A DNA stretch of 30,919 bases from Bacteroidales bacterium (GTDB taxonomy: Bacteria > Bacteroidota > Bacteroidia > Bacteroidales > VadinHA17): assembly GCA_012514255.1 (NCBI GenBank), contig JAAZAP010000295.1, forward strand, positions 1-30,919. Reading direction: 5' to 3'. This document shows positions 4,157-29,981 of this stretch, piece by piece (position 1 is the stretch's first letter; the number at the start of each line of letters is the position of its first letter). Position numbers and translations under genes: made by a program. The notes under the pieces were generated by a model. It had not been told where the DNA came from and made no database searches. It saw only the letters and a program-made list of their open reading frames with translations.

Positions 4157-4168
4157 ATTCGACTTGAT

Positions 4169-5917: not shown

Positions 5918-5956
5918 CAGCACCGGCGAATGAACATATTCAAAATGAGATATACG

Positions 5957-7078: not shown

Positions 7079-7090
7079 AACCGAACGAAA

Positions 7091-9989: not shown

Positions 9990-10655
9990 ATGACTGAAAT
10001 ACTCGAAAGAATCTCAACCTGTGTTGAATATGGCAAGGTTGATCTGAAATCTCCGTATCCTCCGGCCATGAAGGATCAGGAAGGGGCTTTTGAGCTTACG
10101 AGACATGCCCTCGATGCCGGCATCAGTCCAGGAATAATCCTCGAAGAGGCTCTTATTCCCGCAATGTCAAGAGTGGGGCAGAAGTTCTCAAGAAATGAGA
10201 TATTTGTTCCACAGATGCTCATGGCAGCCAAGGCTATGAGCAGCTCAATGATCCATATCAAACCCTATTATCTGTCAGGTGAGACAAAGCGGAAGGGCAC
10301 ATTCATCATCGGTACCGTTAAGGGAGATCTTCATGATATTGGAAAGAACCTGGTATCAATGATGATAGAAGGCGCCGGATGGGAGATCATTGACCTGGGT
10401 GTGGATGTGAGTACCGAGAAGTTCATCGAGGCCGCAGATGATCATCCCGGAGCTGTCATCGGTCTCTCTGCCCTGCTGACCACCACTATGGAGAACATGC
10501 GCAGGAGCGTGGCAGAACTCAGGGAAAGATTCCCTGACCTGAAGATACTCATAGGAGGGGCCCCGGTAACAGCCGAGTTCTGCCAGAAGATCGGTGCCGA
10601 CCACTATTCGCCTGACCCTCAGGGTGCAGTTGAATATCTGAATCAATTGTCATAA
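9990..10655 (+). CDS. Corrinoid (B12-binding) methyl-carrier protein, MtaC/MtvC-like
   Basis: 221 residues, cytoplasmic, no signal peptide. The N-terminal four-helix cap (about 30-90) contains 'SRVGQKFSRNEIFVPQMLM', and the Rossmann-like B12-binding domain (about 102-221) contains the cobalamin motif D113-x-H115-x-x-G118 in 'GTVKGDLHDIG', then 'GLSALLTTTM' and 'ILIGGAPVT'. His115 would be the lower cobalt ligand. Such proteins carry a methyl group on cobalt between two methyltransferases, as in methanol, methylamine and aryl-ether demethylation. It starts one base after the GH10 stop codon and is followed by a pterin-binding methyltransferase and a reactivase gene. Its methyl donor here is inferred to be 4-O-methylglucuronate. 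The family call is firm. Confidence 0.93.
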   Translation: MTEILERISTCVEYGKVDLKSPYPPAMKDQEGAFELTRHALDAGISPGIILEEALIPAMSRVGQKFSRNEIFVPQMLMAAKAMSSSMIHIKPYYLSGETKRKGTFIIGTVKGDLHDIGKNLVSMMIEGAGWEIIDLGVDVSTEKFIEAADDHPGAVIGLSALLTTTMENMRRSVAELRERFPDLKILIGGAPVTAEFCQKIGADHYSPDPQGAVEYLNQLS

Positions 10656-10683
10656 CTCAGCTGCATCTTTACAAAAAATACAG

Positions 10684-11529
10684 ATGAGAACAACACTGAC
10701 GGGAAAAACAAAGGAGGTAATAATTGACACTGAAGGGCCGGTAATCATCATCGGTGAATGTATTAATCCCACCAGGAGGAAGAAGCTGGTATCCACCCTG
10801 CAGGCGTGTGACTTCAGCTATATGCTGGAGCTTGCAGAATCACAGATCAGGGCTATGGCTGATGTACTTGACGTAAACGTGGGATATCCGGGAGTGGATG
10901 ATGAGGATTTGCTGCCGCGGGCTGTCAAAGCGCTGCAGGAAAGATTCGACATTCCGCTCTGTCTTGACTCACCCAACCCGAAGGCCATAGAGGCGGCGCT
11001 GAAGGTGGCCGGGGGCAAATGCCTTATCAATTCCGTGAACGCTGAGGAGTCTTCCCTTCAAAAGCTATTGCCTGTAGCACGGGAGTATGGCGCAGCAATA
11101 ATAGGCCTGGTGCTGGATGATGACGGCATCACCCATGATCCTGAAAAAAGACTCAGGATAGCTGAGAAGATCATTGAACGGGCTGTACGATCCGGCATAA
11201 AGGAGGAGGATGTGATAATTGATCCCATGGCCATGGCAGTCAGTGCAGATCCAATTGCATGCAGAGTGACACTCGAGACCATCAGGCTGGTTCATGATAA
11301 ACTCGGACATAACATAACCCAGGGAGCAAGCAACATCTCCTTTGGCCTTCCTAACCGTGAGAATTTAAACAACGCCTACATGGCCATGTCAATCATGTAC
11401 GGCCTTACATGCCCCATCGCCAACCCGGAGAAGATAACCGGACTGGTGCGGGCTGCCGATCTCGTCCTGGCAAGGGATGAGTATGCAATCAGATTCATAG
11501 AGCATTATCAATCTAACCAGAAGCCCTGA
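10684..11529 (+). CDS. Pterin-binding methyltransferase, corrinoid:tetrahydrofolate type (MtvA/AcsE/MtrH-like)
   Basis: 281 residues with a TIM-barrel pterin-binding domain like that of MetH, AcsE and the methyltransferase II of O-demethylases. Visible motifs are 'IIGECINPTRR' (about 22-32), 'DVLDVNVG' (Asp63, Asn65), 'PLCLDSPNPKAIEAAL' (Asp95), 'LINSVNAE' (Asn116), and 'GASNISFGLPNR' with Asn216. The last corresponds to the conserved Asn that contacts N5 of the pterin in this family. It should move methyl between the corrinoid protein and tetrahydrofolate. It lies 28 nt after the corrinoid gene and lacks B12 and homocysteine domains, so it is a stand-alone methyltransferase and not a full methionine synthase. 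Direction of transfer is not fixed by the sequence. Confidence 0.88.
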   Translation: MRTTLTGKTKEVIIDTEGPVIIIGECINPTRRKKLVSTLQACDFSYMLELAESQIRAMADVLDVNVGYPGVDDEDLLPRAVKALQERFDIPLCLDSPNPKAIEAALKVAGGKCLINSVNAEESSLQKLLPVAREYGAAIIGLVLDDDGITHDPEKRLRIAEKIIERAVRSGIKEEDVIIDPMAMAVSADPIACRVTLETIRLVHDKLGHNITQGASNISFGLPNRENLNNAYMAMSIMYGLTCPIANPEKITGLVRAADLVLARDEYAIRFIEHYQSNQKP

Positions 11530-12221
11530 ACAGATTCAGTTATACATTCCGCGAGCTGATGCCCGGAACTGAAGCCCTGGAGAAGGTCATGGGATATTCA
11601 CGGGGCACTGGACCTGAGCCTCTCACCGAGCTCATAGGCGAGGTCTCAGAAGAACTGATCCCGCTGGGTGATGTAAGGGCGGAGTATATCATATTCGCAC
11701 CAGTCATATGTGACAACAATAAAAAAACAGTTGAGGCAGAGGGAGTTGTATTTAATGTTAAGTCTATCATTTTCAATCAGATAAAAAAGGCCAAGGAGGC
11801 AGCCCTGTTCATCTGCACGGCTGGCGCGGAGATAGGAGAGAGGAGCCGGCGATATATGAAGGAAGGAGACCTCCTGCGGGGATATGTATATGATGTGATT
11901 GGCTCAGAAGTGGTGGAGAATGCAGCCGACAGGATGCAGGAGGAACTCCGTGCCTCAGTTTCCTTACGCGGGATGAATATCACAAACAGGTTCAGCCCCG
12001 GATACTGCGGATGGGATGTTGCGGAACAGCACAAGCTCTTCAGCTTTTTCCCTGACAACTACTGTGGCATCACTCTGACCGAATCAGCCCTGATGAATCC
12101 CGTCAAGTCGGTCAGCGGCCTGATCGGCATAGGCAGGGAGGTCAGGTATGCTCCCTACCAGTGTCATCTCTGTGATGACAGGAACTGCATCTACTGGAAG
12201 AGGAAGTCTGAAGGTCGGTAG
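11526..12221 (+). CDS. Stand-alone MetH-type cobalamin reactivation (activation-domain) protein
   Basis: At least 220 residues (from ATG 11559), resembling the S-adenosylmethionine-binding activation domain of methionine synthase. 'ITNRFSPGYCGWDVAEQ' (Arg144, Tyr149 counted from 11559) matches the RxxPGY motif that binds SAM in MetH. The C-terminus has Cys202-x2-Cys205-x4-Cys210, a possible metal or Fe-S site. The frame stays open upstream, and the extra residues NRFSYTFRELMP look like part of the family N-terminus. The real start may therefore be CTG at 11526, overlapping the previous TGA; this is why the feature begins there. The likely job is SAM-dependent reductive remethylation of oxidised cob(II)amide on the corrinoid protein. 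Start codon uncertain; family fairly sure. Confidence 0.82.
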   Translation: MNRFSYTFRELMPGTEALEKVMGYSRGTGPEPLTELIGEVSEELIPLGDVRAEYIIFAPVICDNNKKTVEAEGVVFNVKSIIFNQIKKAKEAALFICTAGAEIGERSRRYMKEGDLLRGYVYDVIGSEVVENAADRMQEELRASVSLRGMNITNRFSPGYCGWDVAEQHKLFSFFPDNYCGITLTESALMNPVKSVSGLIGIGREVRYAPYQCHLCDDRNCIYWKRKSEGR

Positions 12222-12295
12222 GTCTGAGGTCCGATCGCCCTGTAGGCCATGTGGGCTTTATGTCTTATTATAATCATTTACTATTGTCCCGTTTT

Positions 12296-12400
12296 ACTGC
12301 CGACTGCTGACTGCCGACTGCCGACTGCTGACTGCCGACTGCCGACTGCTGACTGCCGACTGCTGACTGCCGACTGCTGACTGCTGACTGCCGACTGCCA
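12296..12400. repeat. Heptanucleotide tandem repeat, 15 copies of ACTGC(C/T)G
   Basis: Fifteen adjacent 7-bp units alternate irregularly between ACTGCCG and ACTGCTG; the last ends CA. The array lies between the convergent stop codons of the reactivase gene (12221) and the esterase gene (12411). Translation gives only low-complexity peptides, so it is not coding. A short relative (about 2.6 units) sits at 14460-14477. The units are directly adjacent without spacers, so this is not a CRISPR array. It may act as a bidirectional barrier or simply be an unstable satellite. Confidence 0.95.
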
Positions 12401-12410
12401 GAAATGACCG

Positions 12411-14354
12411 TTATCTGTCATCAGTACGAAAGGGTGCTGCCGGCAGTCCCTCCATGTTATAGAGATTGGCTCCAACCGGATTATCAGCCCAGGCATATCT
12501 GACTGCGACCGGTCTCTTCACTTTCCTGTTCTTCACAATCACCTGATCTCCCTTTATCCTGGCTTTTGCCCATACAAACTGCATGTCCTCACCTGCGATG
12601 GCAAAATGACCTGGTCTCCTGCTGCCCCGTGCAACCAGTCCTGACCCTGTATTGTCAAACGAGATGAAAATCCTGCGCCCCTTTACTTTCATTGCTTTGA
12701 AGAGAGGCCCGGAGGAGACCACTTCGTTATCACCATATGCAACCCTTCTGGCAGCCAGTGCCAGCCTGACTCCTACATCCTTTTTGTTCAGCGGGTGGAT
12801 GTCATTCCATTCACCTATGTCATATGTGACCGCCATTCCCGTTGCCGGCAGTTTAAGCGCCTCAGTCTGTGCCTCCCTGAATAACGCCCAGCCGCTGTCA
12901 TAAGGAGCCTCCCTTGATTCCATGAAGTTTGGCAGCTGGACCACCAGGAACGGCACATCGCCCTGGCCGAGGCTGTTCCGCCAGTCCCGTATCATTGCCG
13001 GCAGGAGGGTCCTGTACTCTTCAGGTCTTTCTGCGTTGGACTCACCCTGGTACCAAAGGATGCCCTTAATGCTGTAATTCAGCAGCGGAGCCAGCATAGC
13101 GTTATAAAGCCCTGCCGGCTTGTAACCGAAGAAGGTCTGTTCTCTCAGGGGTGGCATTACAGCCCCGACTTTATACTTCCACTCACCGTCGAGGCTGGTT
13201 TTGAAGTCACCGGCTGTCAGTTCATATGTTTTATCCGGCACAAAACCGGCGTCACCGATGTTACTGATCACTCTCACTGTCAGCATATTTCTTCCTTCCT
13301 TCAGTACCCCTGCCGGGATAGTATACCACCTGGGTGGGTACTGGTAGGATATGGTGCCGACAAATGTCCCATTGATGAAAGCAGAGTCGGCGTCAACTAT
13401 CCTGCCAAGGTTGAGGGTTCCGGGTTGGCCGGCTGCTTCAGCGGGGATGTCTATCTCTTTCCTGAACCACACCACACCGTTTATACCTTTCAGAGGGGTG
13501 CCGGACCAGTATCCCGGAACGGCCACACTGTTCCAGCTGTCAGTATCAAGGTCCTCGTCATACCATCTGACCCCCGGGGTATGGTAACCCTCGTCAGCCT
13601 GCTGAAGATTATTGTACCACTCTGCTATGCGAAGACGGTCTTCGGTCTCTACACCACTGATATAGGAGTCAGACTTTAGTTGCTGCAGCTCCTTGAAGTA
13701 ATGGGGAAACTTTTTCAGGCTCTCCGGGCTGATCCATGCTTCAGCCGGTGAGCCTCCGAAAGCGGATGTAAGCAAACCCACCGGTACACCGTAGACCTGG
13801 TTGATCTCCCGGGCGAAGAACCATGCAGCTGCTGGAAAGTCAAGGATAGTCTCCGGTCCGGCTGCCACCCATTTGCCTCCGGGGAGGTCTGTTTGCGGCC
13901 CACTGAAAATAAAAGTCTTGGGCACAATGAATGATCTTATCAGGCTGTTTTCCGATGCAGCTATCTCAGCTTCGTAAAGAGGCCTGACGCGTCTGACCGG
14001 CAGTTCCATGTTCGACTGTCCGGAGCAAAGCCAAACGTCGCCTATCAGAATATCATCAATTATCAGCTCATTGCTTGCAGATATGGTCATTGTGAAAGGC
14101 CCCCCGGCCTGCATTGGCGGCAGCATTATCATCCAATTGCCGGAATCATCAGTCTCTGTGCCGTATTGTTTCCCTGCAAACTCCAGGACGATATTTTCCC
14201 CGGACTTTGCCCAACCCCATATCTTTAGTTCGGTATCGCGCTGAAGCACCATGCCGTCGCTGATGAGTTTGGGCAGTCTCACCTGTGCGTTCAGTGCAAA
14301 TGTGAAGAGAATTGCAACAAGTGTTGTGGAAAGGATATGAGATATTGTTTTCAT
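12411..14354 (-). CDS. SASA-family carbohydrate O-acetylesterase (sialate O-acetylesterase-like)
   Basis: 647 residues with a type I signal peptide (cleavage likely after LNA, residue 23), so periplasmic or exported. SGNH-type catalytic features are 'WLCSGQSNMELP' with Ser114, 'SAFGGSPAEAWI', 'GILWYQGESNA', and 'WNDIHPLNK' with the catalytic His near 519. A beta-galactosidase-like jelly-roll region ('FRKEIDIP' to 'LTVRVISN') is inserted between halves of the esterase domain, as in many PUL-encoded members. Annotated 'sialate esterase' by homology, but in this locus the probable substrate is acetyl on xylose of glucuronoxylan. It is the last gene of the minus-strand cluster, 123 bases after GH115. 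Specificity is inferred. Confidence 0.88.
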   Translation of the reverse strand: MKTISHILSTTLVAILFTFALNAQVRLPKLISDGMVLQRDTELKIWGWAKSGENIVLEFAGKQYGTETDDSGNWMIMLPPMQAGGPFTMTISASNELIIDDILIGDVWLCSGQSNMELPVRRVRPLYEAEIAASENSLIRSFIVPKTFIFSGPQTDLPGGKWVAAGPETILDFPAAAWFFAREINQVYGVPVGLLTSAFGGSPAEAWISPESLKKFPHYFKELQQLKSDSYISGVETEDRLRIAEWYNNLQQADEGYHTPGVRWYDEDLDTDSWNSVAVPGYWSGTPLKGINGVVWFRKEIDIPAEAAGQPGTLNLGRIVDADSAFINGTFVGTISYQYPPRWYTIPAGVLKEGRNMLTVRVISNIGDAGFVPDKTYELTAGDFKTSLDGEWKYKVGAVMPPLREQTFFGYKPAGLYNAMLAPLLNYSIKGILWYQGESNAERPEEYRTLLPAMIRDWRNSLGQGDVPFLVVQLPNFMESREAPYDSGWALFREAQTEALKLPATGMAVTYDIGEWNDIHPLNKKDVGVRLALAARRVAYGDNEVVSSGPLFKAMKVKGRRIFISFDNTGSGLVARGSRRPGHFAIAGEDMQFVWAKARIKGDQVIVKNRKVKRPVAVRYAWADNPVGANLYNMEGLPAAPFRTDDR

Positions 14355-14402
14355 GGTCTGTAACTCTTATGTCTGAATGTCTGTCGCTTCGCTCTGTCAA
14401 TC

Positions 14403-14477
14403 GGCCCTGCGGTCCTGCAGCCCTGCGGTCCAGCGGTCTTGTAGTCAAGGGTTAAGCGGACTGCCGACTGCTGACTG
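14403..14477. repeat. Short intergenic repeats between GH115 and the esterase gene
   Basis: CCCTGCGGTCC occurs twice (14405-14415 and 14421-14431), followed by a related CAGCGGTC. ACTGCCGACTGCTGACTG at 14460-14477 is a short version of the heptanucleotide array at 12296-12400 and abuts the GH115 stop codon. These look like low-complexity intergenic repeat families that have entered the same gene cluster more than once. Confidence 0.75.
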
Positions 14478-17447
14478 TTATCTGTTGTAACTCTCTGGCG
14501 GGCCAAGGTATGACGGCCGCAGTCCTCCGGTGTTCACAACTATCTTTTCAAGTACCATTCCCGGATCAATCATCCATACTCTGAGGATGTGGTAACCGGG
14601 TTCGGTAACAGTAATTTTTCCTTTAACGTATCGTGTGCTGTTGCGGACAGTCTCTTCCCACTCCCTGTTAAAGTTCTCGGCATTGAATCCTGCCGGCACA
14701 ACGGTTAAAAGTTGAGGTTCGCCTTCATCAACGGAGAGCCCGATTTTAAAGTCCCTGTCAGGCAAGAAGTTGAGAGAGGGAGCCATGTGCAGCACTGCTT
14801 CAAACTCACCTGTAGAGAAGAGATACATTTTATACTCAAGCACGGGGGAATCTTTCCCGGGCACTGCAGGAGGGGCATCGGTCATGGCTGAGGTGCGCAT
14901 GCCCGAGCGGGTTCTGCCATAATCCTCAATCCACTCCCATTTCCGGTTCTCAGTATCATGTCTGGCAGAATAACTGTCTGCCTCCATTGACACATATCCG
15001 TCTGCTTCAACAAATCCTTCAACAGTGGCAGGATCGGGAGTTGCATGACGGAAGGCCGTTACGCCTATCTTTATCTCACTGCCTGCCGCAGTGACAGTAA
15101 CATATCCTTCGTTAAGCCCATTGGTCAGCTTATCCCAATTAACGGATACATTTACTCTTTGCTGGTCACTGATGGTTCCGCCGGTTTTGCCAAGGATGAT
15201 CCATGGCTTGCCGGCCTCAACCGTGTATTCAAACGGTTCACTGCCGCGGTTGAAGATCTCAAAATATCTTGTCTGTTTGTTGAATACATCAAACGGAGGC
15301 AGCATGGGATCCGTCCCTGGTCCCGGCCATGCTTCTGCTGATCCTTCCACTGCCACGGCGGGCAGTGATCCCGGAGCGGTAGCGGGGCGTTCAAGCCTGA
15401 TGTGACGGAGGCTGTTCTCCGGCGGATCATTCCATGCAATGTATCCCAGGTGAGCCTGATCCATGAAGTGTTTCCACCTGCCACCGGCATACACACGGTT
15501 ATAATATCCCATCAGGGCAGTGTCAGCAGTGAAGAGTTGTTCCGTGCGGTCAGCCATCTCCGAAGTATTCGCCCTGCCCTGCCGGGCGTAGAGTGCATTC
15601 TTTCCTGCTGTGACATAGAGCTCATTTACAATTGCGCATGCTTTCACGGGAAAGAGAACCAGGTGAAAGTATGCATCCTCCAACTCAGCGGGCAACTTTT
15701 GCCCGATCTCTTCAGCCCTGACAGACAGTCTGTTATATTCATCCACAATCCGCTCAGCTTCGTTATAATTCACAAGACTGTAGGTAGAGGGCGAGAGCAG
15801 TTCTGGTTTGCGGCGCCCGTTGAAGCGGGTGTATTCTCTTATTATCCCGGCTATCTCGCCTGCATGCTCCGGTCCAAAAATATCTGCTGCCCACTGCTCA
15901 ATCCAGGCAGCCATCTCATTGCTGCCCGGCGTGCCGGTATCCCATGCCAGGTCCAGGAAGTATTCAATCGGGATTTCATATCCCCTGAAGTGCCCCACAT
16001 TGACAATCCATATCCTGTCGGCGCCGTACAGTTTTGCCAGTGACATCTGGTCCCAGATCTTCGGGATGGGGCTGGTGTTGATCCACTGGTAGCTTCGCGG
16101 CCCGCCGTGATAATCAAAATGGTAGTAAATCCCTGCACCTCCGCTGCGTTTTCTTTCATCAGCTGTAGGCAGACGGCGCACATTGCCCCAGTTGTCCTCT
16201 GCCCAGAGCAGGGTCACATCGTCAGGCACTCTCATTCCCTTATAATAGTAATCCTGCACCTCCTTATAGAGACACCACATCTGCGGCACTTTTGTGACAT
16301 CAGGATTTATCTCCCTGGCGATCATATCGCGCTGTATCTTCACTATCTCTTCCAGCCTGGCTATATTGGCTGCCGGACCGCCCGGCCCCATCTCCGTGTC
16401 GTCGGCTCCCCGCAGGCCGATGGTGATTATGCTTTCATAATCACGGTTGCGCCTTATGCCGTTACGCCAGAATTTAACAAGTGTGTCCTGGTGGTTTGTC
16501 CAGCTCCAGTATCCCAGGGTTTTCTGGTACCGACGGTCCCATTCCTTCTGTGCCCTGATCATCGGTTCCTGGTGTGACGTTCCCATTACAATGCCGTATT
16601 CATCAGCCAGCCGGGCGTTGCGAGGGTCGTCCTCATTGAAGGCGTTGTTCCACATTGCCGGCCAGAGGTAATTTGCCTTCAGCCTGAGAAGCAGTTCGAA
16701 TATCCTTGAGTAAAACTCACTGCCGTAGCTGGCAACACCCGGTGGTACCGGCGGGTTGTCTGAGGGTGTGACGTCTCCGTACTTATAGGATACCCATCTG
16801 GTCAGTGCGGGGTACTCATCGTTCAGAAATATCCCCCGGTATTTAACTGAGGGTTCACCCCATGTGTAACGGCCGGGATTAACGTAGAGCTCACTGCTCT
16901 TACGGGCCGGCACGTCGGCCCACCAGTGCCAGGGCGAGATGCCTGCCTGCCTTGAGATCTCGTATATTCCGTAGATTGTGCCCCGTTTGTCACTGCCAGC
17001 AATGACGAGTGCACTCTTCACTCCCGGGAAAGGCTTTTCAACAGTCTGGATAACGAAAGATTCCCACCGCCCGGTAATGGCTCCCACATCTATTTTTTTC
17101 TTTTTTATCAGTCGTTCTATCAGGGCACTTCTGCCAATAGTCCCTGCGATGATTACAAACTCAGACCGGGGAGGTTTTGAAGCCGTTACCAAATCCGGAA
17201 TAGCCCCTGTGACCAGGCCGAGGTCATTCTGCAAGTCAGTGAAAGCCCTCTTCACTCCCGGCCACTCTCCGGGGCTGACTAAAAGGGGCGTGCAACCGCC
17301 GGCAGAGGCAAGAACAAGCGATCCGGCGCTCTTCTCAGCTGAAATGATCACCTCAGCCTTCTGCTGACCGGCGGCAGGGATGCCATGAAGTGACAGGACA
17401 AGGAGGAGGGAGGTGACCAGGGTTCTGAGGTCAGAAGGTCCCGACAC
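14478..17447 (-). CDS. GH115 xylan alpha-1,2-glucuronidase
   Basis: About 990 residues from a GTG at 17447. The frame opens at ATG 17576, but the first 43 codons cross hairpin-forming and repeat-like DNA, and the signal peptide (LRTLVTSLLLVLSLHGIPAAG) lies just after the GTG. GH115 landmarks are 'GTIYGIYEISRQAGISPWHW' and 'PSVKYRGIFLNDEYPALTRW'. Also present are 'WPAMWNNAFNEDDPRNARLA', 'MGTSHQEPMIRAQKEW', 'LLWAEDNWGNVRRLP' and 'GAGIYYHFDYHGG'. The family's C-terminal beta domain holds 'WEWIEDYGRTRSGMR'. GH115 removes (4-O-methyl)glucuronic acid from internal xylose residues of glucuronoxylan, probably in the periplasm. This releases the same sugar the methyltransferase genes could process. 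Start uncertain; function well supported. Confidence 0.92.
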   Translation of the reverse strand: MSGPSDLRTLVTSLLLVLSLHGIPAAGQQKAEVIISAEKSAGSLVLASAGGCTPLLVSPGEWPGVKRAFTDLQNDLGLVTGAIPDLVTASKPPRSEFVIIAGTIGRSALIERLIKKKKIDVGAITGRWESFVIQTVEKPFPGVKSALVIAGSDKRGTIYGIYEISRQAGISPWHWWADVPARKSSELYVNPGRYTWGEPSVKYRGIFLNDEYPALTRWVSYKYGDVTPSDNPPVPPGVASYGSEFYSRIFELLLRLKANYLWPAMWNNAFNEDDPRNARLADEYGIVMGTSHQEPMIRAQKEWDRRYQKTLGYWSWTNHQDTLVKFWRNGIRRNRDYESIITIGLRGADDTEMGPGGPAANIARLEEIVKIQRDMIAREINPDVTKVPQMWCLYKEVQDYYYKGMRVPDDVTLLWAEDNWGNVRRLPTADERKRSGGAGIYYHFDYHGGPRSYQWINTSPIPKIWDQMSLAKLYGADRIWIVNVGHFRGYEIPIEYFLDLAWDTGTPGSNEMAAWIEQWAADIFGPEHAGEIAGIIREYTRFNGRRKPELLSPSTYSLVNYNEAERIVDEYNRLSVRAEEIGQKLPAELEDAYFHLVLFPVKACAIVNELYVTAGKNALYARQGRANTSEMADRTEQLFTADTALMGYYNRVYAGGRWKHFMDQAHLGYIAWNDPPENSLRHIRLERPATAPGSLPAVAVEGSAEAWPGPGTDPMLPPFDVFNKQTRYFEIFNRGSEPFEYTVEAGKPWIILGKTGGTISDQQRVNVSVNWDKLTNGLNEGYVTVTAAGSEIKIGVTAFRHATPDPATVEGFVEADGYVSMEADSYSARHDTENRKWEWIEDYGRTRSGMRTSAMTDAPPAVPGKDSPVLEYKMYLFSTGEFEAVLHMAPSLNFLPDRDFKIGLSVDEGEPQLLTVVPAGFNAENFNREWEETVRNSTRYVKGKITVTEPGYHILRVWMIDPGMVLEKIVVNTGGLRPSYLGPPESYNR

Positions 17448-17570
17448 CTTTCGGGTATCGGGTTTTGGCTTCGCCGAGCTCACCGCCAAAGGCGGCTCGG
17501 TTCGGCCCTGCCCGAGGCGGTTCCTCAATCTGAAGGTGTTATAATCTGAAGGTCCGGTTACAGTGATTGT
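17448..17570. repeat. Hairpin and repeat-like DNA upstream of GH115
   Basis: CCGAG (17474-17478) and CCGCC (17483-17487) pair across an AAA loop with GGCGG (17491-17495) and CTCGG (17496-17500), forming a two-part GC-rich hairpin. Nearby, on the minus strand, ACCTTCAGATT and ACCTTCAGATTG-like units recur about every 15 bases (near 17531-17556). The open reading frame runs through it, but the encoded peptide looks unlike a signal sequence. I read this as an intergenic repeat element, not coding. Confidence 0.6.
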
Positions 17571-17597
17571 TTCCATGGTTGGGGTGACTTGATCTGA

Positions 17598-18983: not shown

Positions 18984-19054
18984 AAAATCAGATTTCAATA
19001 AACCTTCGGACCCTTTCAAACAAAAGGACCCATGCCAATCCCTGTTCCGGGATC

Positions 19055-21328: not shown

Positions 21329-21348
21329 AGTCTATTGTTTAATAAGTT

Positions 21349-22467: not shown

Positions 22468-22501
22468 CAGGTAATTTTTTATTAGTTTATTGGTTCAATG
22501 G

Positions 22502-22555
22502 AACTTGCATGAGAAAATAATCATATTCTTATATGAGTTGCCGCTGATGCAAGTT
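22502..22555. repeat. Nested inverted repeat between the symporter and GH10 genes
   Basis: Outer arms AACTTGCAT (22502-22510) and ATGCAAGTT (22547-22555) are perfectly complementary. Between them, TCATAT (22521-22526) and ATATGA (22531-22536) form a second hairpin with loop TCTT. It could slow or partly end transcription after the symporter gene, or be a protein-binding site. No T-run supports a simple terminator. Confidence 0.55.
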
Positions 22556-22576
22556 TCATCTCAGTATTTTTTGTTC

Positions 22577-24034
22577 TTATTCAGTATAAGCCTTGCGTCT
22601 CTCGGCCAGTTCATCCTGCATCTGGTATTCCACCTTCTTACCGATGCCATAGATGAAGAGGGCTATTACGCACAGTGCCAGGGCTATGACCGGGAAGATG
22701 CTTACTGAGAGCCTGATGCCCTGAACGGCTGTAGGAGTCTGCACCACATTGGCAACATATCCGTATCCGTTGAGGAGCCATCCGGCCACGGCACCGCCGA
22801 CTGCCAGGCCCACCTTGAGACCCACAACAATACCTGCGAAGACGATACCTGTAGCACGGCGGTTGAACTTCCATTCGGAGTAGTCGGCCACGTCAGCCAT
22901 CATTGCCCAGGGCAGAGGCATTGTAACGCCCCATGAGAAGTTAAAGAGTATTGAGAGGATGAGTATTGCCCAGATGCCTGACGGTGGCACCACAAAGAAG
23001 AGGGCTGCCATTATGCCTGCAATGATGAGCCATGTCCTGAAGACATCTCTCTTGCCGAATCTCTTGGCCAGTGCGTTGCCGACTGCTATGCCGGGGATCG
23101 CACAGAGCTGACCTATAATATTAATAACGCTGAAGCTGTTGTCGGCATAATTGGCCCCTACGGAGGTCAGTTTCAGTCCTTCGAGCAGGCCAAAGAGCCC
23201 CTTGTCAATATTGACCAGGAATTCCCTCATGCTCTCAGGATCAAGATAGTACTTGAAGTAGTAGAGAAGGATGCTGTTTCGCATTGACAGGAAGATGAAC
23301 ATAAAGAGGAAGACGACGAACATCAGCACCCACTGCCTGTTGTTGATAAGGTCCGCGAGGTCCTGCTTCAATGACGACTTCTGCTGTGGCGGAGGAGCTA
23401 TCCTCTCTTTAGTTGAGAAGAAGGTAATAAAGAAGAAGATTATGGCAAGGATACTGAAAATCCCCATTGTGATCTGGTACCCTTTTGCACTGTCACCGGC
23501 ACCGAAGTGGTTTACCATTGGCAGTGTGAATCCCATGATGGCTATTGTAGCCAGTGTGACGACCACAAACCTGACCGAGGATAGGCTGGTGCGTTCCTTC
23601 ATGTTGCCTGTGATCACGCCGCTAAGGGCTGAGTAGGGATTATTGTTTGCCGAATAGACGGTCAGCAGGAGCAGGTAGGTAATGTATGCATAGATCAGTT
23701 TTCCTGTCTGACTGAAATCAGGGGTTTTAAAGGCAAGATAGCCCAGCACGCCGAACGGTATCGCCGTCCACAGTATCCAGGGTCTGAATTTGCCCCACCG
23801 GGTGTTGGTACGGTCAGCCAGTGCCCCGAAGATGGGGTCACAGACCGCCCCCCACAGGCGGGCAATAAGGAATAGTGTTGCAGCGGCTCCTGCCGATAGT
23901 CCGAATGTATCTGTGTAGAAACTGAGCTGAAGCAGCATCATTGTCTGGAAGATGAAGTTGGCGGCACCGTCTCCCAGACTGTAGCCAAGCTTCTCCCTGA
24001 AAGCGAGTTTTCCTGTCGCGGATTGCATTGTCAA
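22577..24034 (-). CDS. GPH-family sugar:cation symporter (xyloside/glucuronide transporter)
   Basis: 485 residues with about 12 hydrophobic helices and no signal peptide. The GPH signature is clear: 'LGYSLGDGAANFIFQ' at the N-terminus, 'DPIFGALADRTNTRWGKFRPW' after helix 2, and 'MADVADYSEWKFNRRATG' in the second half. The family (MelB, XynB/XylP, GusB-type) imports pentosides, glucuronides and small oligosaccharides with Na+ or H+. Here the cargo could be xylobiose, aldouronic fragments or free 4-O-methylglucuronate; the sequence does not decide. It is the first gene of the minus-strand operon, divergent from the lacI-type gene, and its promoter overlaps the LacI-type operator. Confidence 0.92.
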   Translation of the reverse strand: MTMQSATGKLAFREKLGYSLGDGAANFIFQTMMLLQLSFYTDTFGLSAGAAATLFLIARLWGAVCDPIFGALADRTNTRWGKFRPWILWTAIPFGVLGYLAFKTPDFSQTGKLIYAYITYLLLLTVYSANNNPYSALSGVITGNMKERTSLSSVRFVVVTLATIAIMGFTLPMVNHFGAGDSAKGYQITMGIFSILAIIFFFITFFSTKERIAPPPQQKSSLKQDLADLINNRQWVLMFVVFLFMFIFLSMRNSILLYYFKYYLDPESMREFLVNIDKGLFGLLEGLKLTSVGANYADNSFSVINIIGQLCAIPGIAVGNALAKRFGKRDVFRTWLIIAGIMAALFFVVPPSGIWAILILSILFNFSWGVTMPLPWAMMADVADYSEWKFNRRATGIVFAGIVVGLKVGLAVGGAVAGWLLNGYGYVANVVQTPTAVQGIRLSVSIFPVIALALCVIALFIYGIGKKVEYQMQDELAERRKAYTE

Positions 24035-24077
24035 TTGGTTAAAGAGTTACACTGATTGTTTAGGCATGTTCGCTGAT

Positions 24078-24104
24078 GCCGGGCATGACAGTTCAATGCC
24101 CGGC
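24078..24104 (-). other. Leader hairpin of the symporter mRNA
   Basis: GCCGGGCAT (24078-24086) and ATGCCCGGC (24096-24104) form a perfect 9-bp stem with a 9-nt loop. It would lie at the very 5' end of the minus-strand transcript if transcription begins near 24108-24110. It may stabilise the mRNA; no T-run follows. Confidence 0.5.
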
Positions 24105-24115
24105 CCAAAGCGTAA

Positions 24116-24146
24116 CTAAAGTAGATAATCTGGATTAATTATGCAA
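24116..24146 (-). promoter_or_regulatory. Predicted promoter for the symporter operon
   Basis: On the minus strand, TTG (24146-24144), a 20-nt spacer and TACTTTAG (24123-24116) fit TTG-N-TAnnTTTG with one mismatch. As at susC, the TTG lies within the LacI-type operator in the same orientation. Confidence 0.55.
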
Positions 24147-24155
24147 CCGATTGCA
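24142..24155 (-). promoter_or_regulatory. LacI-family operator in the divergent symporter/lacI gap
   Basis: TGCAACCGATTGCA is the exact reverse complement of the site at 706-719. It sits between the divergently transcribed symporter and lacI-type genes, the classical place for autoregulation, and overlaps the predicted symporter -33 element. Confidence 0.82.
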
Positions 24156-24211
24156 AAAAATAGTTCAAAAAATTTCAATAATAGCGGTTTTCTTACTTAT
24201 TTTGAAGAATT

Positions 24212-25252
24212 ATGACCGGAATGAAGAAAAAGGCCGAGGTCACCATCTATGACATCTCCAGGGCGCTGAATATCTCGGCCTCAACGGTCTCGCGCGGCCT
24301 TAACAACAGCCCGCAGGTAAGAAAGGAATTGCGCAGAAAGATATTGCAGACGGCACAGGAGATGGGCTACCAGCACAACAAGTTTGCCGCTAACCTGAGG
24401 CAGAAAAGGACAAGGACCCTCGGGGTGGTCATACCCCGGATAGACAGCCACTTCATGTCCACAGTCATCTCAGGCATGGAGAAGGTGGCCAATAATGCGG
24501 GCTACCAGCTTCTGATCAGCCAGAGCGAAGAGTCGGCCATCCTCGAGGAGGCGAATATCCAGGCCCTCTTCAACAGCCGGGTAGATGGCATGTTCGTATC
24601 ACTTTCCTATGAAACAAAGAACAGTGACGGATTCAAAAACATACTGCGCAGGGATATCCCACTCGTCTTTTTCGACAGGGTGCTGGAATGCAACAACTGC
24701 GTAAGCGTGGTGATTGACAACTACCGGGCCGGATATGAGGCAACAGGGCATCTCATCAGACAGGGGTGCAAAAAGATTGTACACGTTGCAGGGAGCCTGA
24801 ACAGGAACGTGTATAATGATCGTTACAGAGGTTACAGGCAGGCTTTGTCTGACAACTCACTGCCGTTTGACGAAAGGATGCTCATAGTGACGGATCTGGG
24901 TGACAACTCGGGAATGACAATACTTAACCACCTCCTGAACAACGGAACGATGCCTGACGGTATTTTCACGGCAAATGACAACTCGGCCGTCTCACTCATC
25001 TGCGAGCTCAAGAGAAAAGGATATCGGATCCCTGATGATATAGCCGTTGCGGGTTTCAATGACGACCCCGTCTCACGAATAGTGGAGCCCAACCTTACCA
25101 CGGTTCATTACCCGGGCAGGGCAATGGGAGAGGTGGCTGCCTCAACCATGATACGGATACTCGAGGGGACACAGTACGAAAAGGTCAATACCATAACACT
25201 GACACATGAGCTCATTATAAGGCAGTCATCACTCAGGTCAGGCAAGGAATGA
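24212..25252 (+). CDS. LacI/GalR-family transcriptional regulator
   Basis: 346 residues. The N-terminal helix-turn-helix and hinge helix ('VTIYDISRALNISASTVSR' to 'KFAANLRQKRTRTLGVVIP') are typical LacI. The rest is a periplasmic-binding-protein-like sugar-sensing domain with 'DSHFMSTVISGMEKVA', 'RVDGMFVSLS', 'IPLVFFDRV', 'VVIDNYRAGYEATGHLI', 'GIFTANDNSAV' and 'DDIAVAGFNDDP'. It probably represses the locus through TGCAA-N4-TTGCA sites at 706 and 24142 and releases them on binding a xylan-derived sugar; the inducer is unknown. Its stop overlaps the GH67 start (ATGA at 25249), so it leads an operon with GH67, the UroD-fold gene, xylB and xylA. PULs in this phylum usually use hybrid two-component or ECF systems. 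Confidence 0.94.
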   Translation: MTGMKKKAEVTIYDISRALNISASTVSRGLNNSPQVRKELRRKILQTAQEMGYQHNKFAANLRQKRTRTLGVVIPRIDSHFMSTVISGMEKVANNAGYQLLISQSEESAILEEANIQALFNSRVDGMFVSLSYETKNSDGFKNILRRDIPLVFFDRVLECNNCVSVVIDNYRAGYEATGHLIRQGCKKIVHVAGSLNRNVYNDRYRGYRQALSDNSLPFDERMLIVTDLGDNSGMTILNHLLNNGTMPDGIFTANDNSAVSLICELKRKGYRIPDDIAVAGFNDDPVSRIVEPNLTTVHYPGRAMGEVAASTMIRILEGTQYEKVNTITLTHELIIRQSSLRSGKE

Positions 25253-27408
25253 CTATTATGATAAGGAGATCACTACTTATTATCTTTCTGCTGGCACCCC
25301 TGGCGGTAGCGCTGGCTGATGATGGTTACAGACTGTGGCTCGGGTATGACCGCATTACTGACAGGGTTTACCTGAGAGATTGCTCCCGGCGGTTTGAGAA
25401 TGTCATGATCACCGGCACCTCTCCGGTGCTCAGAACCGCTCATGATGAATTAATAGCAGGCCTGGAAGAGATGACCGGACTGGAGATCAGGGAGGTGAAT
25501 GCTCCCTCAGGACGGGGAACAATTATTGCAGGAACGTTTATTTCATCACCGCTTATCGCTTCGCTTCTTCCCAACATGGAACCGGGTACTACAGGAGAGG
25601 AGGGGTATATAATAAGAAGCTTCAGGCAGGGAAGGAGAATGATCACGGTGGTTGCCTCTGAAGGAGAGAGGGGTGTGCTTTATGGTATCTTCCATCTTCT
25701 CAGGATAATTGAGACAGAATCGCCTCTTGATGACCTCTCAATACTGGAGAAGCCTGCCGCAACCCTCAGGCTCCTAAATCACTGGGATAACCTTGACGGT
25801 ACGGTTGAGAGGGGTTATGCCGGCGGATCAATATGGAACTGGCATCTGTTGCCTGATTATATCCATCCGCGTTATGTTGATTATGCCAGGGCAAATGCCT
25901 CCATTGGTATCAACGGAACTGTCATCACCAATGTCAATGCAAATGCGCTGGTATTAACCCCGCATTATCTCGCCAAAGTTGCTGCGCTGGCTGATGTGAT
26001 GAGGCCTTACGGCATAAAAGTTTACCTTACTGCCCGCTTCAGCGCCCCGCAGGAGATTGGCGGTCTTAATACTTCCGATCCGCTTGATCCGGAGGTTATC
26101 CGCTGGTGGAAAGACAAGGTTGCAGAGATATGCGCCCTGATCCCTGATTTCGGTGGTTTTCTCGTCAAGGCCAACTCTGAAGGCCAGCCCGGGCCTCAGA
26201 ACTACGGGCGCTCTCATGCTGACGGTGCCAATATGCTGGCAGCTGCCGTGGAGCCCTGTGGAGGGGTTGTCATGTGGAGGGCGTTTGTATATGATAATAA
26301 TGTTCCCGTTGACAGGGCGAAGCAGGCTTATAACGAATTTGTGCCTCTTGACGGCACCTTCAGGGATAACGTGCTGGTGCAGGTAAAGAACGGACCCATC
26401 GACTTCCAGCCCAGGGAGCCCTATCATCCGCTCTTCGGTGCCATGCCCTCCACACCCTTGATGATGGAGTTCCAGATAACCCAGGAGTATCTTGGGTGCT
26501 CTACCCACCTTGTCTACCTTGCTCCCCTCTTCAGCGAGGTTCTTGAGAGTGACACCTATGCTGCCGGCCCTGGATCAGAAGTGTCAGAGGTTATTGACGG
26601 TTCTCTCCACGGCCACACCCTTACAGGTATGGCAGGTGTTTCCAATATAGGTACAGAAAGAAACTGGACGGGTCATCTCTTCGGACAGGCCAACTGGTAT
26701 GCCTTCGGCCGGCTGGCATGGAACCCGCGACTGACTCCTGCTGAGATCGCTTCCGAATGGATCAGGATGACAATTACCCATGACCCTGACATTGAAGAGG
26801 TTATTGCCGGCATAATGCTCACGTCCAGGGAGACGGCGGTGAACTATATGACACCCCTCGGCCTGCACCACATCATGGCCGAAGGGCATCACTGGGGCCC
26901 GGGCCCGTGGGTTGACCGCGGACGACCGGACTGGACATCAGTCTATTACCACAGGGCTGACACATTCGGGATTGGTTTTGACCGGACACGGTCAGGAAGT
27001 GATGCCGTCAGCCAGTACTTCCCGCCTCGGGATGAGATCTTCAATGATCCGCAGAGATGCCCTGAGAATTTGTTGCTCTGGTTCCATCATCTGCCCTGGT
27101 ATCATGTCATGAAATCAGGCAGGACACTATGGGATGAGATGTGCCTCACCTACCAGGAGGGAGTGGACACTGCTGAAGAGTACCGCCTACTGTGGGAGAC
27201 GCTCAGGGGGAAGGTTGATGAGGGGCAATTTGAGCACGTAAGGCAGATGCTCGGAATACAGGCTGCGGAGGCACGCTGGTGGAAGGATGCCTGCCTGCTC
27301 TATTATCAGACATTTTCACGGATGCCCTTCCCTGAAGGGGTGGAGCAGCCACTACATAGCCTGGAATATTACCGCGGATTGAGATTCCATTATGTTCCAG
27401 GCATTTAG
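25249..27408 (+). CDS. GH67 alpha-glucuronidase
   Basis: 719 residues with a type I signal peptide (MIRRSLLIIFLLAPLAVALA, cleavage near 23); the start may be ATG 25249 or 25258. GH67 signature 'LNHWDNLDGTVERGYAGGS' is at about 176-194. Likely catalytic residues by family comparison are Glu311 in 'VKANSEGQPGP' (acid), Asp385 in 'NGPIDFQP' and Glu413 in 'ITQEYLG' (bases). GH67 removes 4-O-methylglucuronic acid from the non-reducing end of short aldouronic acids, complementing GH115. Many GH67 enzymes are intracellular; the signal peptide suggests periplasmic action here. Four-base overlap with the regulator gene; the UroD-fold methyltransferase gene begins 28 nt downstream. Confidence 0.96.
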   Translation: MTIMIRRSLLIIFLLAPLAVALADDGYRLWLGYDRITDRVYLRDCSRRFENVMITGTSPVLRTAHDELIAGLEEMTGLEIREVNAPSGRGTIIAGTFISSPLIASLLPNMEPGTTGEEGYIIRSFRQGRRMITVVASEGERGVLYGIFHLLRIIETESPLDDLSILEKPAATLRLLNHWDNLDGTVERGYAGGSIWNWHLLPDYIHPRYVDYARANASIGINGTVITNVNANALVLTPHYLAKVAALADVMRPYGIKVYLTARFSAPQEIGGLNTSDPLDPEVIRWWKDKVAEICALIPDFGGFLVKANSEGQPGPQNYGRSHADGANMLAAAVEPCGGVVMWRAFVYDNNVPVDRAKQAYNEFVPLDGTFRDNVLVQVKNGPIDFQPREPYHPLFGAMPSTPLMMEFQITQEYLGCSTHLVYLAPLFSEVLESDTYAAGPGSEVSEVIDGSLHGHTLTGMAGVSNIGTERNWTGHLFGQANWYAFGRLAWNPRLTPAEIASEWIRMTITHDPDIEEVIAGIMLTSRETAVNYMTPLGLHHIMAEGHHWGPGPWVDRGRPDWTSVYYHRADTFGIGFDRTRSGSDAVSQYFPPRDEIFNDPQRCPENLLLWFHHLPWYHVMKSGRTLWDEMCLTYQEGVDTAEEYRLLWETLRGKVDEGQFEHVRQMLGIQAAEARWWKDACLLYYQTFSRMPFPEGVEQPLHSLEYYRGLRFHYVPGI

Positions 27409-27436
27409 ACATTATTAAACCAAGCGTATCTGACCT

Positions 27437-28471
27437 ATGAATGACAGACACTGGGAGACCCTTCTTAAGGTTATCAACGGAGAAAAGACAGAAGAGAGGC
27501 CTGTGGGTTTCATCATTGACAGTCCATGGCTGCCCGGCTGGCATGGAACAACCATCCTTGAATATTTCACTGATCCTGTCACCTGGTTCGAGTCTAACCT
27601 CCATGCGCAGGAAGCTTTTCCCGATGTGATGTTCCTGCCGGGCTTCTGGTCCGAGTACGGTATGTGCACTGAACCTTCTGCCTTTGGCACCAGGATGGTA
27701 TGGACTGAGAACGACTTTCCTCACCCGGTTAAGCTGAACTGTTCCACCGAAGCCATATCGGCATTGACAAAACCCAATGTGAAGACTGACGGTCTTCTTC
27801 CCTTCGTCATAAGCCGTATGGCGAAATATGAGGATAAGGTCAAGACAACCGGATGTCACTACCGCTTTGCCGTCAGTCGCGGGCCACTCAATATAGCTTC
27901 CTTCCTCTTCGGGACTACCGAGTTCATGATGGCGCTGGCGGTCACCCCTGACGAAGCACAGAAGGCACTGACGGTAATTACTGACTTCGTCATTGACTGG
28001 CTGGAGCTGCAATATGCCAGGTTCCCTGACATAGAGGGAGTACTTGTGCTGGATGATATTGTGGGCTTCCTCGGACAACCTGACTTTGAGACATTCGTTC
28101 TGCCTCACCTGAAAAGAATTTACAGTACATTCAACCCGAAGGTTGGTTTCTTTCACAATGATGCGGCAGGCGTGATTACAGCGCAATACCTTAAGCAGAT
28201 AGGTATCAACCTCTTCAACTTCAGTTTCAATCATCCGATCACTGAGATAAGAAAGCTTGCCGGTGAAGAGGTCATTCTTCTTGGCAACCTGCCGCCAAGG
28301 GATGTTCTTGCCATGGGTTCACCAGCCGACGTGGAGGCAGGCGTGAAGAGCATGATGCGCGAGGCTGCCAACACAAAGGGAATAATTTGGTCATGCGGGG
28401 GCGGCATGCCTCCAGATGCACCAACGGAAAATATCCGTACATTTATCTCGACAGTGAGAAATTATTCCTAA
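27437..28471 (+). CDS. UroD-fold cobamide-dependent methyltransferase (candidate methyl-ether:corrinoid methyltransferase)
   Basis: 344 residues, cytoplasmic, of the uroporphyrinogen-decarboxylase superfamily. It lacks the N-terminal Arg-rich substrate motif of true HemE, and 'LDDIVGFLGQPDFETFVLPHLKRIY' is the helix-strand pattern seen in MtaA/MtbA/CmuA-type methyltransferases. Where MtaA has zinc ligands His-x-Cys and a distant Cys, this protein has His240-Asn-Asp242 ('GFFHNDAAG') and Cys320 ('WSCGGG'): one ligand is Asp, not Cys. It lies between GH67 (28 nt) and xylulokinase (12 nt), so it is expressed with enzymes that release and use xylan sugars. With the corrinoid protein at 9990, it would demethylate 4-O-methylglucuronate. 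Superfamily sure; substrate inferred. Confidence 0.8.
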   Translation: MNDRHWETLLKVINGEKTEERPVGFIIDSPWLPGWHGTTILEYFTDPVTWFESNLHAQEAFPDVMFLPGFWSEYGMCTEPSAFGTRMVWTENDFPHPVKLNCSTEAISALTKPNVKTDGLLPFVISRMAKYEDKVKTTGCHYRFAVSRGPLNIASFLFGTTEFMMALAVTPDEAQKALTVITDFVIDWLELQYARFPDIEGVLVLDDIVGFLGQPDFETFVLPHLKRIYSTFNPKVGFFHNDAAGVITAQYLKQIGINLFNFSFNHPITEIRKLAGEEVILLGNLPPRDVLAMGSPADVEAGVKSMMREAANTKGIIWSCGGGMPPDAPTENIRTFISTVRNYS

Positions 28472-29971: not shown

Positions 29972-29981
29972 TAATAACATT

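What the first reader, a model, noticed from the sequence alone, without database searches (positions are those of the whole stretch)
9990..28471. Candidate cobamide-dependent O-demethylase for 4-O-methylglucuronate built into a glucuronoxylan locus
Seen: one locus encodes a corrinoid carrier protein (9990), a pterin-binding methyltransferase (10684), a MetH-type reactivase (11526), and a UroD-fold methyltransferase (27437). These match the roles of CP, MT II, activator and MT I in anaerobic aryl-ether O-demethylases. Established: the locus also has GH115, GH67 and GH30, enzymes that deal with 4-O-methylglucuronic acid, the only O-methylated part of hardwood xylan. Inference: the system removes the methyl ether of the released sugar acid, giving glucuronate for normal uronate breakdown and methyl-tetrahydrofolate for C1 metabolism or energy. 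I know of no described sugar methyl-ether demethylase of this type. An alternative is a general methyl-transfer module placed here by chance.
Basis: partly seen in the sequence, partly recalled or inferred. Interest (0 to 1): 0.95.

Follow-up and report, generated by a model that had tools for sequence, protein, structure and literature searches.

The report
B12-dependent demethylase for xylan's methyl-glucuronate
Inside its gene set for digesting wood-type xylan, an uncultured Bacteroidales bacterium carries a vitamin-B12-type methyl-transfer gene set headed by the same candidate control-site sequence as the xylan genes, and this system likely removes the methyl group from 4-O-methylglucuronic acid, the methylated sugar acid of xylan, a step for which no enzyme turned up in the papers searched here.

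Summary
Confirmed: the window holds a glucuronoxylan locus (GH10, GH115, GH67, GH3, GH30-like, acetylesterase, SusC/D, GPH symporter, LacI) with a corrinoid protein (CP), a pterin-binding methyltransferase (MT2), a MetH-type activation protein (ACT) and a UroD-fold protein. It is not a chance placement. In related genomes CP-MT2-ACT and LacI-(GH67)-UroD keep their places. The UroD operon continues past the window's end into a MetV-MetF methylene-THF reductase in 12 of 12 loci L001-L012. One operator-like sequence, TGCAACCGATTGCA, lies before susC and before lacI in the window. In 18 genomes scanned, all 25 sites of this type lie by SusC, LacI, GH67, esterase or GH115 genes or before CP; in two genomes the only exact site lies just before CP-MT2-MetVF-ACT. 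Separate MetH-length and MetF genes speak against a split methionine synthase. UroD and CP co-occur across the order (17 of 19 against 28 of 276). Most likely UroD moves the methyl of 4-O-methylglucuronate to CP, then THF, then methylene-THF. The substrate is inferred; no assay exists. Many distant UroD relatives sit in other contexts.

The parts
706..719 (.). LacI-type operator-like site TGCAATCGGTTGCA upstream of the susC...GH10-CP-MT2-ACT operon
   Evidence: Exact; reverse complement of the site at 24142; two matches against 0.12 expected by chance
1025..8794 (+). SusC, SusD and two TIG-domain proteins: outer-membrane capture of xylan fragments
   Evidence: Pfam
8882..9988 (+). GH10 xylanase, one base before CP
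   Evidence: PF00331 E 1.4e-99
9990..10655 (+). corrinoid protein (CP), methyl carrier
   Evidence: PF02607, PF02310; DxHxxG motif DLHDIG; best solved relative 1y80, E 5.5e-47
10684..11529 (+). methyl-THF:corrinoid methyltransferase-type protein (MT2)
   Evidence: PF00809; PRK07535 254.9 bits, cut-off 259; best solved relative 4o0q, E 2.4e-35
11559..12221 (+). MetH-type reactivation protein (ACT)
   Evidence: PF02965; solved relative 1j6r, E 9.3e-8
12411..14354 (-). SASA-family acetyl esterase
   Evidence: PF03629
14478..17576 (-). GH115 alpha-glucuronidase
   Evidence: PF15979 E 1.5e-144, PF17829
17598..22467 (-). GH30-like protein, GH3, GH10
   Evidence: Pfam; GH30 below its cut-off
22577..24034 (-). 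GPH symporter, probable importer of the released uronic acid or oligosaccharide
   Evidence: TIGR00792 395.8 bits, cut-off 231
24142..24155 (.). LacI-type operator-like site TGCAACCGATTGCA between the GPH and lacI genes
   Evidence: Exact; kept in related loci
24212..25252 (+). LacI-family regulator
   Evidence: PF00356, PF13377
25249..27408 (+). GH67 alpha-glucuronidase
   Evidence: PF07488 E 1.8e-151
27437..28471 (+). UroD-fold methyltransferase, proposed MT I (O-demethylase of 4-O-methylglucuronate)
28484..29971 (+). xylulokinase-like FGGY kinase
   Evidence: PF00370; XylB model 308 bits, cut-off 380
29973..30917 (+). xylose isomerase-like gene, cut by the window end; followed by MetV-MetF in relatives
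   Evidence: PF01261, weak and below its cut-off; order in L001-L012

Best explanation
The locus encodes a corrinoid protein, a methyl-THF:corrinoid methyltransferase-type protein, a MetH-type activation protein and a UroD-fold protein among glucuronoxylan genes that carry one shared operator-like sequence, and together they likely form an anaerobic cobamide-dependent O-demethylase for 4-O-methylglucuronic acid. Proposed course, inferred unless a call is named: GH115 and GH67 release 4-O-methylglucuronate, the GPH symporter imports it, UroD passes the O4 methyl to Co(I) of CP, MT2 passes it to tetrahydrofolate, and the MetV-MetF protein encoded further on in the UroD operon of relatives oxidises methyl-THF to methylene-THF. 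The glucuronate left would enter the UxaC route; a UxaC gene was hit in 24 of 25 genomes examined, one of them by a short fragment. ACT would rescue CP when its cobalt is oxidised. The LacI regulator would switch all of this on with xylan.
For: Families and order. CP-MT2-ACT present in 11 of 11 genomes G001-G011, beside the esterase or GH115 in 8; the other 3 are cut by contig ends. LacI directly upstream of UroD, or of GH67-UroD, in 14 of 14 loci L001-L014. MetV-MetF after XylA in 12 of 12 loci L001-L012 (Pfam on 4 of them, L002, L003, L009, L012), and inside CP-MT2-MetVF-ACT in G014, G021, G028 and G029 (Pfam on G014's). Operator-like site: 25 of 25 sites of the ACCGAT/ATCGAT type in 18 genomes lie by SusC, LacI, GH67, esterase or GH115 genes or before CP; in G028 and G029 the only exact site lies 70-95 bases before CP, and in G028 a one-mismatch copy lies by the lacI-GH67 genes. 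UroD and CP co-occur in the order: 17 of 19 against 28 of 276, and lie in one divergent cluster with ACT in G045 and G285. MTTB-type MT I in 0 of 14 genomes, MtaB in 0 of 11 close genomes (1 of 14 searched, G027). UroD directly after GH67 in a planctomycete (L064) and directly before UxaC in L076. In L009-L011 GH67 is broken or gone while LacI and UroD stay, with GH115 seen in L009 and L011, as expected if UroD follows the released sugar acid rather than one glycosidase.
Against: No assay. Removing a methyl from an unactivated sugar ether is harder than from an aryl ether. UroD is remote from CdmB, the only solved MT I of the O-demethylase group that was hit (9rui, E 0.02). No RACE activator in the window. 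UroD is not the only possible partner of CP: each of the 11 close genomes has at least one further PF01208 hit, and the one examined (G002, L234) is MtaA/CmuA-like, so the argument by exclusion is weak. GH115 occurs without this UroD in 33 of 276 genomes, so it is not required for glucuronoxylan use. GH115 is present in 11 of 19 UroD genomes of the order, and GH67 in 19 of 39 UroD genomes, one a fragment. Most distant UroD relatives lie away from GH67/GH115, often by GFO/IDH/MocA, DUF6807 or GcvP genes. G012, G013 and G024 have UroD but no standalone CP at E 1e-20; these drafts may be incomplete. G028 and G029 have the operator-like site at CP, but in G028 no copy within 2 mismatches lies in the UroD locus L041. 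Before CP no site within 3 mismatches was found in G018 or G021, and only a 3-mismatch one in G014; near UroD in L064, L076 and L203 only 3-mismatch sites or none. The tree label for xylan context is not more clustered than chance (78 of 500 shuffles as low).
Confidence: 0.7

Rival explanations
1. The same four-part system demethylates methoxylated aromatics (ferulate, vanillate, syringate) freed with xylan, as known anaerobic O-demethylases do.
For: Known UroD-superfamily MT I enzymes MtvB, OdmB and VdmB act on methoxylated aromatics (PMC13222342, passages); MT2's best solved relative, 4o0q, is as I recall the Desulfitobacterium O-demethylase MT II.
Against: No feruloyl esterase or aromatic-degradation family was hit among the 19 window proteins scanned. 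UroD follows GH67 and precedes xylose genes, lies before UxaC in L076, and is remote from CdmB by sequence.
Confidence: 0.08
2. CP, MT2, ACT and UroD are a split methionine synthase that happens to lie in the xylan locus.
For: CP, MT2 and ACT match the three C-terminal modules of MetH, MetV-MetF could supply methyl-THF, and in other lineages CP sits near a homocysteine S-methyltransferase (PF02574 in L146; a homologue in L214).
Against: No homocysteine domain in the window's trio; in 8 of 11 close genomes a MetH-length open frame (about 1,150-1,290 aa) and a classical MetF lie on one contig elsewhere; the trio's operon is headed by the xylan operator-like site.
Confidence: 0.04
3. The system demethylates another methylated compound that arrives with plant polysaccharide: another O-methyl sugar, a methyl glycoside or methanol; or CP's partner is the second, MtaA/CmuA-like UroD protein of these genomes.
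For: Distant UroD relatives lie by GFO/IDH/MocA oxidoreductases, DUF6807, ThuA, GH95 or SusC/D without GH67/GH115, so the family likely has several substrates; a further PF01208 hit occurs in each close genome.
Against: In the window clade the neighbours and the operator-like site are those of glucuronoxylan, whose only O-methylated sugar is 4-O-methylglucuronate (established chemistry); the methanol enzyme MtaB is absent from 11 of 11 close genomes; the second UroD gene in G002 lies on another contig than the xylan locus, by a SIS-domain gene.
Confidence: 0.12
4. A general methyl-transfer module placed here by chance, or running in the methylating direction.
For: The reaction direction cannot be read from sequence; 14 of 276 genomes without UroD carry a CP of 54% identity or more.
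Against: Conserved synteny, shared operator-like site and UroD-CP co-occurrence.
Confidence: 0.06

Closest known systems
Anaerobic aryl-ether O-demethylases (OdmB/VdmB of Acetobacterium, MtvABC of Moorella, archaeal MtoABCD)
   Same: MT I of the UroD superfamily, small corrinoid protein, methyl-THF (or H4MPT) methyltransferase and a reactivating protein
   Different: Here the activator is MetH-type, not ATP-dependent RACE; MT I looks only distantly related; genes sit in a xylan locus with a LacI operator-like site; predicted substrate is an aliphatic sugar ether
Cdm chloromethane methyltransferase (CdmBCA), PMC13222342
   Same: UroD-superfamily MT I with CP and MT II
   Different: Haloalkane substrate; assayed with an ATP-dependent activating enzyme; not in a polysaccharide locus
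P450 demethylase of 6-O-methyl-galactose in porphyran-degrading Flavobacteriia (PMC10033563; Reisky 2018 as cited there)
   Same: Removes a methyl ether from a sugar, encoded beside polysaccharide-degrading genes
   Different: Oxidative, releases formaldehyde; here corrinoid-dependent, predicted oxygen-free, methyl kept as methyl-THF
Type 1 mlp gene clusters (PMC10418091)
   Same: UroD-superfamily proteins with a corrinoid protein
   Different: Those have two or more Mlps and a Ram/RACE protein, the examples read lack the THF methylase, and they are linked to sulfur/selenium

Membership tests
Corrinoid-dependent O-demethylase system | MT I, CP, MT II and an activator in one locus | tested here: met
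   candidates for all four parts, 9990-28471
Corrinoid-dependent O-demethylase system | CP with the DxHxxG corrinoid-binding motif | tested here: met
   DLHDIG; motif recalled
Corrinoid-dependent O-demethylase system | MT II of the methyl-THF (pterin-binding) type | tested here: met
Corrinoid-dependent O-demethylase system | MT I of the UroD superfamily | tested here: met
Corrinoid-dependent O-demethylase system | MT I falls in the clade of MtvB/OdmB/VdmB | tested here: inconclusive
   CdmB only at E 0.02; no MtvB/OdmB sequence was in hand for a tree
Corrinoid-dependent O-demethylase system | ATP-dependent RACE/Ram activator in the locus | tested here: not met
   Activator is Met_synt_B12; whole genomes were not searched for RACE
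Corrinoid-dependent O-demethylase system | Demethylates a methyl ether in vitro | not testable with these tools
   no assay
Cobalamin-dependent methionine synthase (MetH) | Homocysteine-binding module | tested here: not met
   absent from the trio; MetH-length frame elsewhere in relatives
Uroporphyrinogen decarboxylase HemE | Passes the hemE equivalog cut-off | tested here: not met
   53.5 bits against 303
Type 1 mlp gene cluster | At least two Mlps plus a RACE protein | tested here: not met
   one UroD-family protein and no RACE among the 19 window proteins scanned
Glucuronoxylan utilisation locus | SusC/D with GH10, GH115/GH67 and esterase | tested here: met

The most novel reading that the evidence does not exclude
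A new class of corrinoid methyltransferase that cleaves aliphatic methyl ethers of sugars without oxygen: the window's version acts on 4-O-methylglucuronate of wood xylan and feeds the methyl into folate, and its relatives in Bacteroidota, Planctomycetota and Verrucomicrobiota (beside GFO/IDH/MocA, DUF6807, UxaC or GH95 genes) demethylate other O-methyl sugars.
Probability: 0.58. Interest if true: 0.88.

Novelty: new variant of a known kind. Interest (0 to 1): 0.82.

Why it matters
4-O-methylglucuronate is the standard side group of hardwood xylan and a large pool of biomass methyl, yet nine literature searches here (open-licence papers, listings of at most 20 titles) showed no enzyme that removes its methyl ether. 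If true, xylan methyl groups enter anaerobic one-carbon metabolism directly as methyl-THF, without methanol or formaldehyde. It would join hemicellulose breakdown to methyl-group metabolism and add aliphatic sugar ethers to the substrates of corrinoid methyltransferases. One purified-protein assay would settle it.

Tried and rejected
Split methionine synthase: rejected because 8 of 11 close genomes carry a MetH-length frame and a classical MetF on one contig elsewhere; G004 and G005 show no MetH-length frame, G005 and G007 no classical MetF, and G004 only a MetF fragment. HemE: rejected on score. MttB- or MtaB-type donors: absent from the close genomes. Argument that UroD is the only possible MT I: dropped on re-check, because each close genome has a further PF01208 hit; the one in G002 is MtaA/CmuA-like. 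The TGCAACCGGTTGCA variant found by the operator pattern is not counted as regulatory: 8 of 33 sites; the 5 inspected lie inside lipA coding sequence, the other 3 (G004:C90, G009:C51, G010:C2) were not inspected. Tree test of whether xylan context is clustered: weak, three changes of the label, shuffled mean 3.8, 78 of 500 shuffles as low. Pocket analysis was not possible for want of model coordinates; residues invariant in 63 of 63 sequences (D28, E73, E79, R148, D206, D207, H240, N241, D242) are only noted. CdmB appeared weakly in the sequence search and is not among the 50 entries shown by VIA-align. Literature searches that showed nothing on a corrinoid sugar-ether demethylase; some searches listed 20 of 58, 20 of 22 and 20 of 559 papers, one search listed 12 of 228.
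Full report
Observation. The window has 49 mechanical ORFs of 90 aa or more; 19 were scanned against Pfam. They give three gene blocks. Plus strand: SusC, SusD, two TIG proteins, GH10, CP, MT2, ACT. Minus strand: GPH symporter, GH10, GH3, GH30-like, GH115, SASA esterase. Plus strand: LacI, GH67, UroD, xylulokinase-like, xylose isomerase-like, cut by the window's end. Gaps inside the blocks are short (1 base from the GH10 stop to CP, 28 and 29 bases within CP-MT2-ACT, 28 bases from GH67 to UroD), so each block reads as an operon (inference). GH67 begins with a signal-peptide-like stretch, while CP, MT2, ACT and UroD do not (read by eye), which would place release of the sugar acid outside the cytoplasm and demethylation inside.

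Synteny. A profile of 29 UroD sequences found 487 relatives in the genome collection, of which 80 loci were kept. In L001-L014 (65-87% identity) LacI lies directly before UroD, or before GH67-UroD, in 14 of 14. GH67 is intact between them in 8 (L001-L008), a fragment in L010, a trace in L009, and absent in L011-L014 (one search finds no intact GH67 anywhere in the genomes G009-G014). GH115 is seen in L009, L011 and L014; the flank of L010 ends before it. XylB, XylA and then a protein of about 480 aa follow UroD in 12 of 12 loci L001-L012; Pfam on four of these (L002, L003, L009, L012) shows MetV (DUF5981) fused to MTHFR. CP-MT2-ACT are present together in 11 of 11 genomes G001-G011, beside the esterase or GH115 in 8, the other 3 being cut by contig ends. 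G002, G008 and G011 show the same SusD-TIG-TIG-GH10-CP-MT2 order.

Beyond the close clade. CP-MT2-MetVF-ACT form one operon in G014, G021, G028 and G029 (in G029 CP itself was placed); G018 has CP-MT2-MetVF without a found ACT. In G014 the operon continues into XylB-XylA, and in G028 it lies near two GH67 genes and a LacI. UroD relatives follow GH67 directly in the planctomycete L064, lie by GH10 and GPH in the planctomycete L080, follow SusD-GH115-esterase-LacI in L027 and L202, precede UxaC directly in L076, and are divergent to ACT-CP in G045 and to ACT-CP-homocysteine-methyltransferase-like genes in G285. In a maximum-likelihood tree of 95 UroD rows, 15 of the 17 xylan-context rows fall in one Bacteroidota group of 19 (support 100/97) and the two planctomycete rows fall elsewhere.

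One operator-like site. TGCAANCGNTTGCA occurs exactly twice in the window, at 706 before the susC operon and at 24142 between GPH and lacI, as exact reverse complements; 0.12 matches are expected with one mismatch allowed. A whole-genome scan of 18 genomes found 33 sites in 16 of them and none for the backward-read control. Eight are the CCGG variant; the five inspected lie inside lipA. The other 25, in 13 genomes, were all looked at and lie by SusC, LacI, GH67, esterase or GH115 genes, or before CP. In G003, G007 and G012 the site before lacI differs by one base, so the exact scan misses it. In G028 and G029 the only exact site in the genome lies 70-95 bases before CP-MT2-MetVF-ACT; in G028 a copy with one mismatch lies between lacI-GH67 and a GFO gene. 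In G024 one site lies at the start of a GH67 gene on another contig than UroD, and another lies before LacI-UroD. Chance expectation of the asymmetric 14-mer is about 0.025 per 3.4-Mb genome. Against: in the stretches scanned no such site within three mismatches lies before CP in G018 or G021, only a three-mismatch one in G014, and only three-mismatch sites or none near UroD in L064, L076 and L203. That LacI binds the site is inferred.

Not methionine synthesis. In 8 of 11 close genomes (G001-G003, G006, G008-G011) and in G012-G014, G021, G028 and G029 a MetH-length open frame (about 1,150-1,290 aa, found through its corrinoid domain) and a classical MetF (in G006 in pieces) lie on one contig, apart from MetV-MetF. 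G004 and G005 show no MetH-length frame; G005 and G007 no classical MetF.

Co-occurrence. In 295 genomes of the order of G002, UroD is in 19. A CP at E <= 1e-40 is in 17 of these 19 and in 28 of the other 276 (Fisher 9e-14); counting only CPs of 54% identity or more, 17 of 19 against 14 of 276 (2.4e-17). GH115 is in 11 of 19 against 33 of 276 (7.6e-6). Shared ancestry and genome size inflate these values. UroD genomes also often lack GH115 or GH67 (GH67 in 19 of 39, one a fragment), so the family as a whole is not tied to xylan. MTTB is absent from 14 of 14 genomes searched; MtaB is absent from 11 of 11 close genomes and present in 1 of 14 searched (G027). PF01208 has 2-4 hits per close genome: this UroD and at least one more. 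The one in G002 (L234, by a SIS-domain gene on another contig) is MtaA/CmuA-like, 126 bits against a cut-off of 235. It cannot be excluded as a partner of CP. UxaC is hit in 24 of 25, in G029 as a fragment, in G001 not at all.

Literature. UroD-superfamily MT I enzymes MtvB, OdmB and VdmB demethylate methoxylated aromatics, and CdmB does not act on methoxylated alcohols (PMC13222342, passages). MtoB/MtoC/MtoA act on methoxybenzoates with an ATP-dependent activator (PMC8630106, passages). The sugar demethylase described in the papers I looked into is the P450 for 6-O-methyl-galactose (PMC10033563, abstract and passages). A reference title records fermentation of 2-methoxyethanol by Acetobacterium malicum (seen in the reference list of PMC12062537), so anaerobic use of an aliphatic methyl ether has a precedent; its enzyme was not looked up. 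Mlp clusters (PMC10418091, outline, abstract and passages) differ in content. The passages seen of PMC5217386 and PMC4428132 say nothing on demethylation of the sugar acid.

Shown and inferred. Shown: gene content, order, conserved synteny, shared operator-like sequence, co-occurrence, separate MetH-length and MetF genes. Inferred: that UroD is the MT I of this CP, that its substrate is 4-O-methylglucuronate, the direction of methyl flow, the role of ACT, and that LacI binds the site. I put 0.9 on one co-regulated methyl-transfer system serving glucuronoxylan use, and 0.70 on UroD with 4-O-methylglucuronate (free or xylose-linked) as the donor.

Noticed in passing
window, between 12221 and 12411: Short tandem repeats of GACTGCCGACTGC type fill much of the gap between ACT and the esterase gene (printed; no repeat finder run).
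   Followed up: no
L145, L146, L214: Other Bacteroidota carry CP with a homocysteine S-methyltransferase (PF02574 in L146) and ACT; L145 and L146 also have a CobW protein and a UroD protein of about 539 aa, in L146 ending in a thioredoxin domain. This suggests methyl flow to methionine instead of THF.
   Followed up: partly
L148, L149, L151: CP beside homologues of MtaB (methanol type), CobW and RACo/RACE; MtaB and RACo confirmed by family models in L149 only.
   Followed up: partly
many of L018-L079 and L204-L211: Distant UroD relatives recur with GFO/IDH/MocA oxidoreductases, DUF6807, ThuA or GcvP; substrate unknown.
   Followed up: partly
L020, L026, L028, L039, L045, L050, L054, L061, L062: Planctomycetota UroD relatives lie by a second URO-D protein and an Nramp-like protein; some also by SSF and 3-hydroxyisobutyrate-dehydrogenase-like genes.
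   Followed up: no
L009 and L010, between LacI and UroD: Broken GH67 remnants where close relatives have an intact gene, while UroD is intact.
   Followed up: yes
L154 (G006), L162 (G014), L141 (G018): A CP beside a different UroD-family protein of about 418 aa, likely another methyl donor system.
   Followed up: no
L234 (G002:C34): A second, MtaA/CmuA-like UroD protein next to a SIS-domain sugar-isomerase-like gene in a close relative; role unknown.
   Followed up: partly
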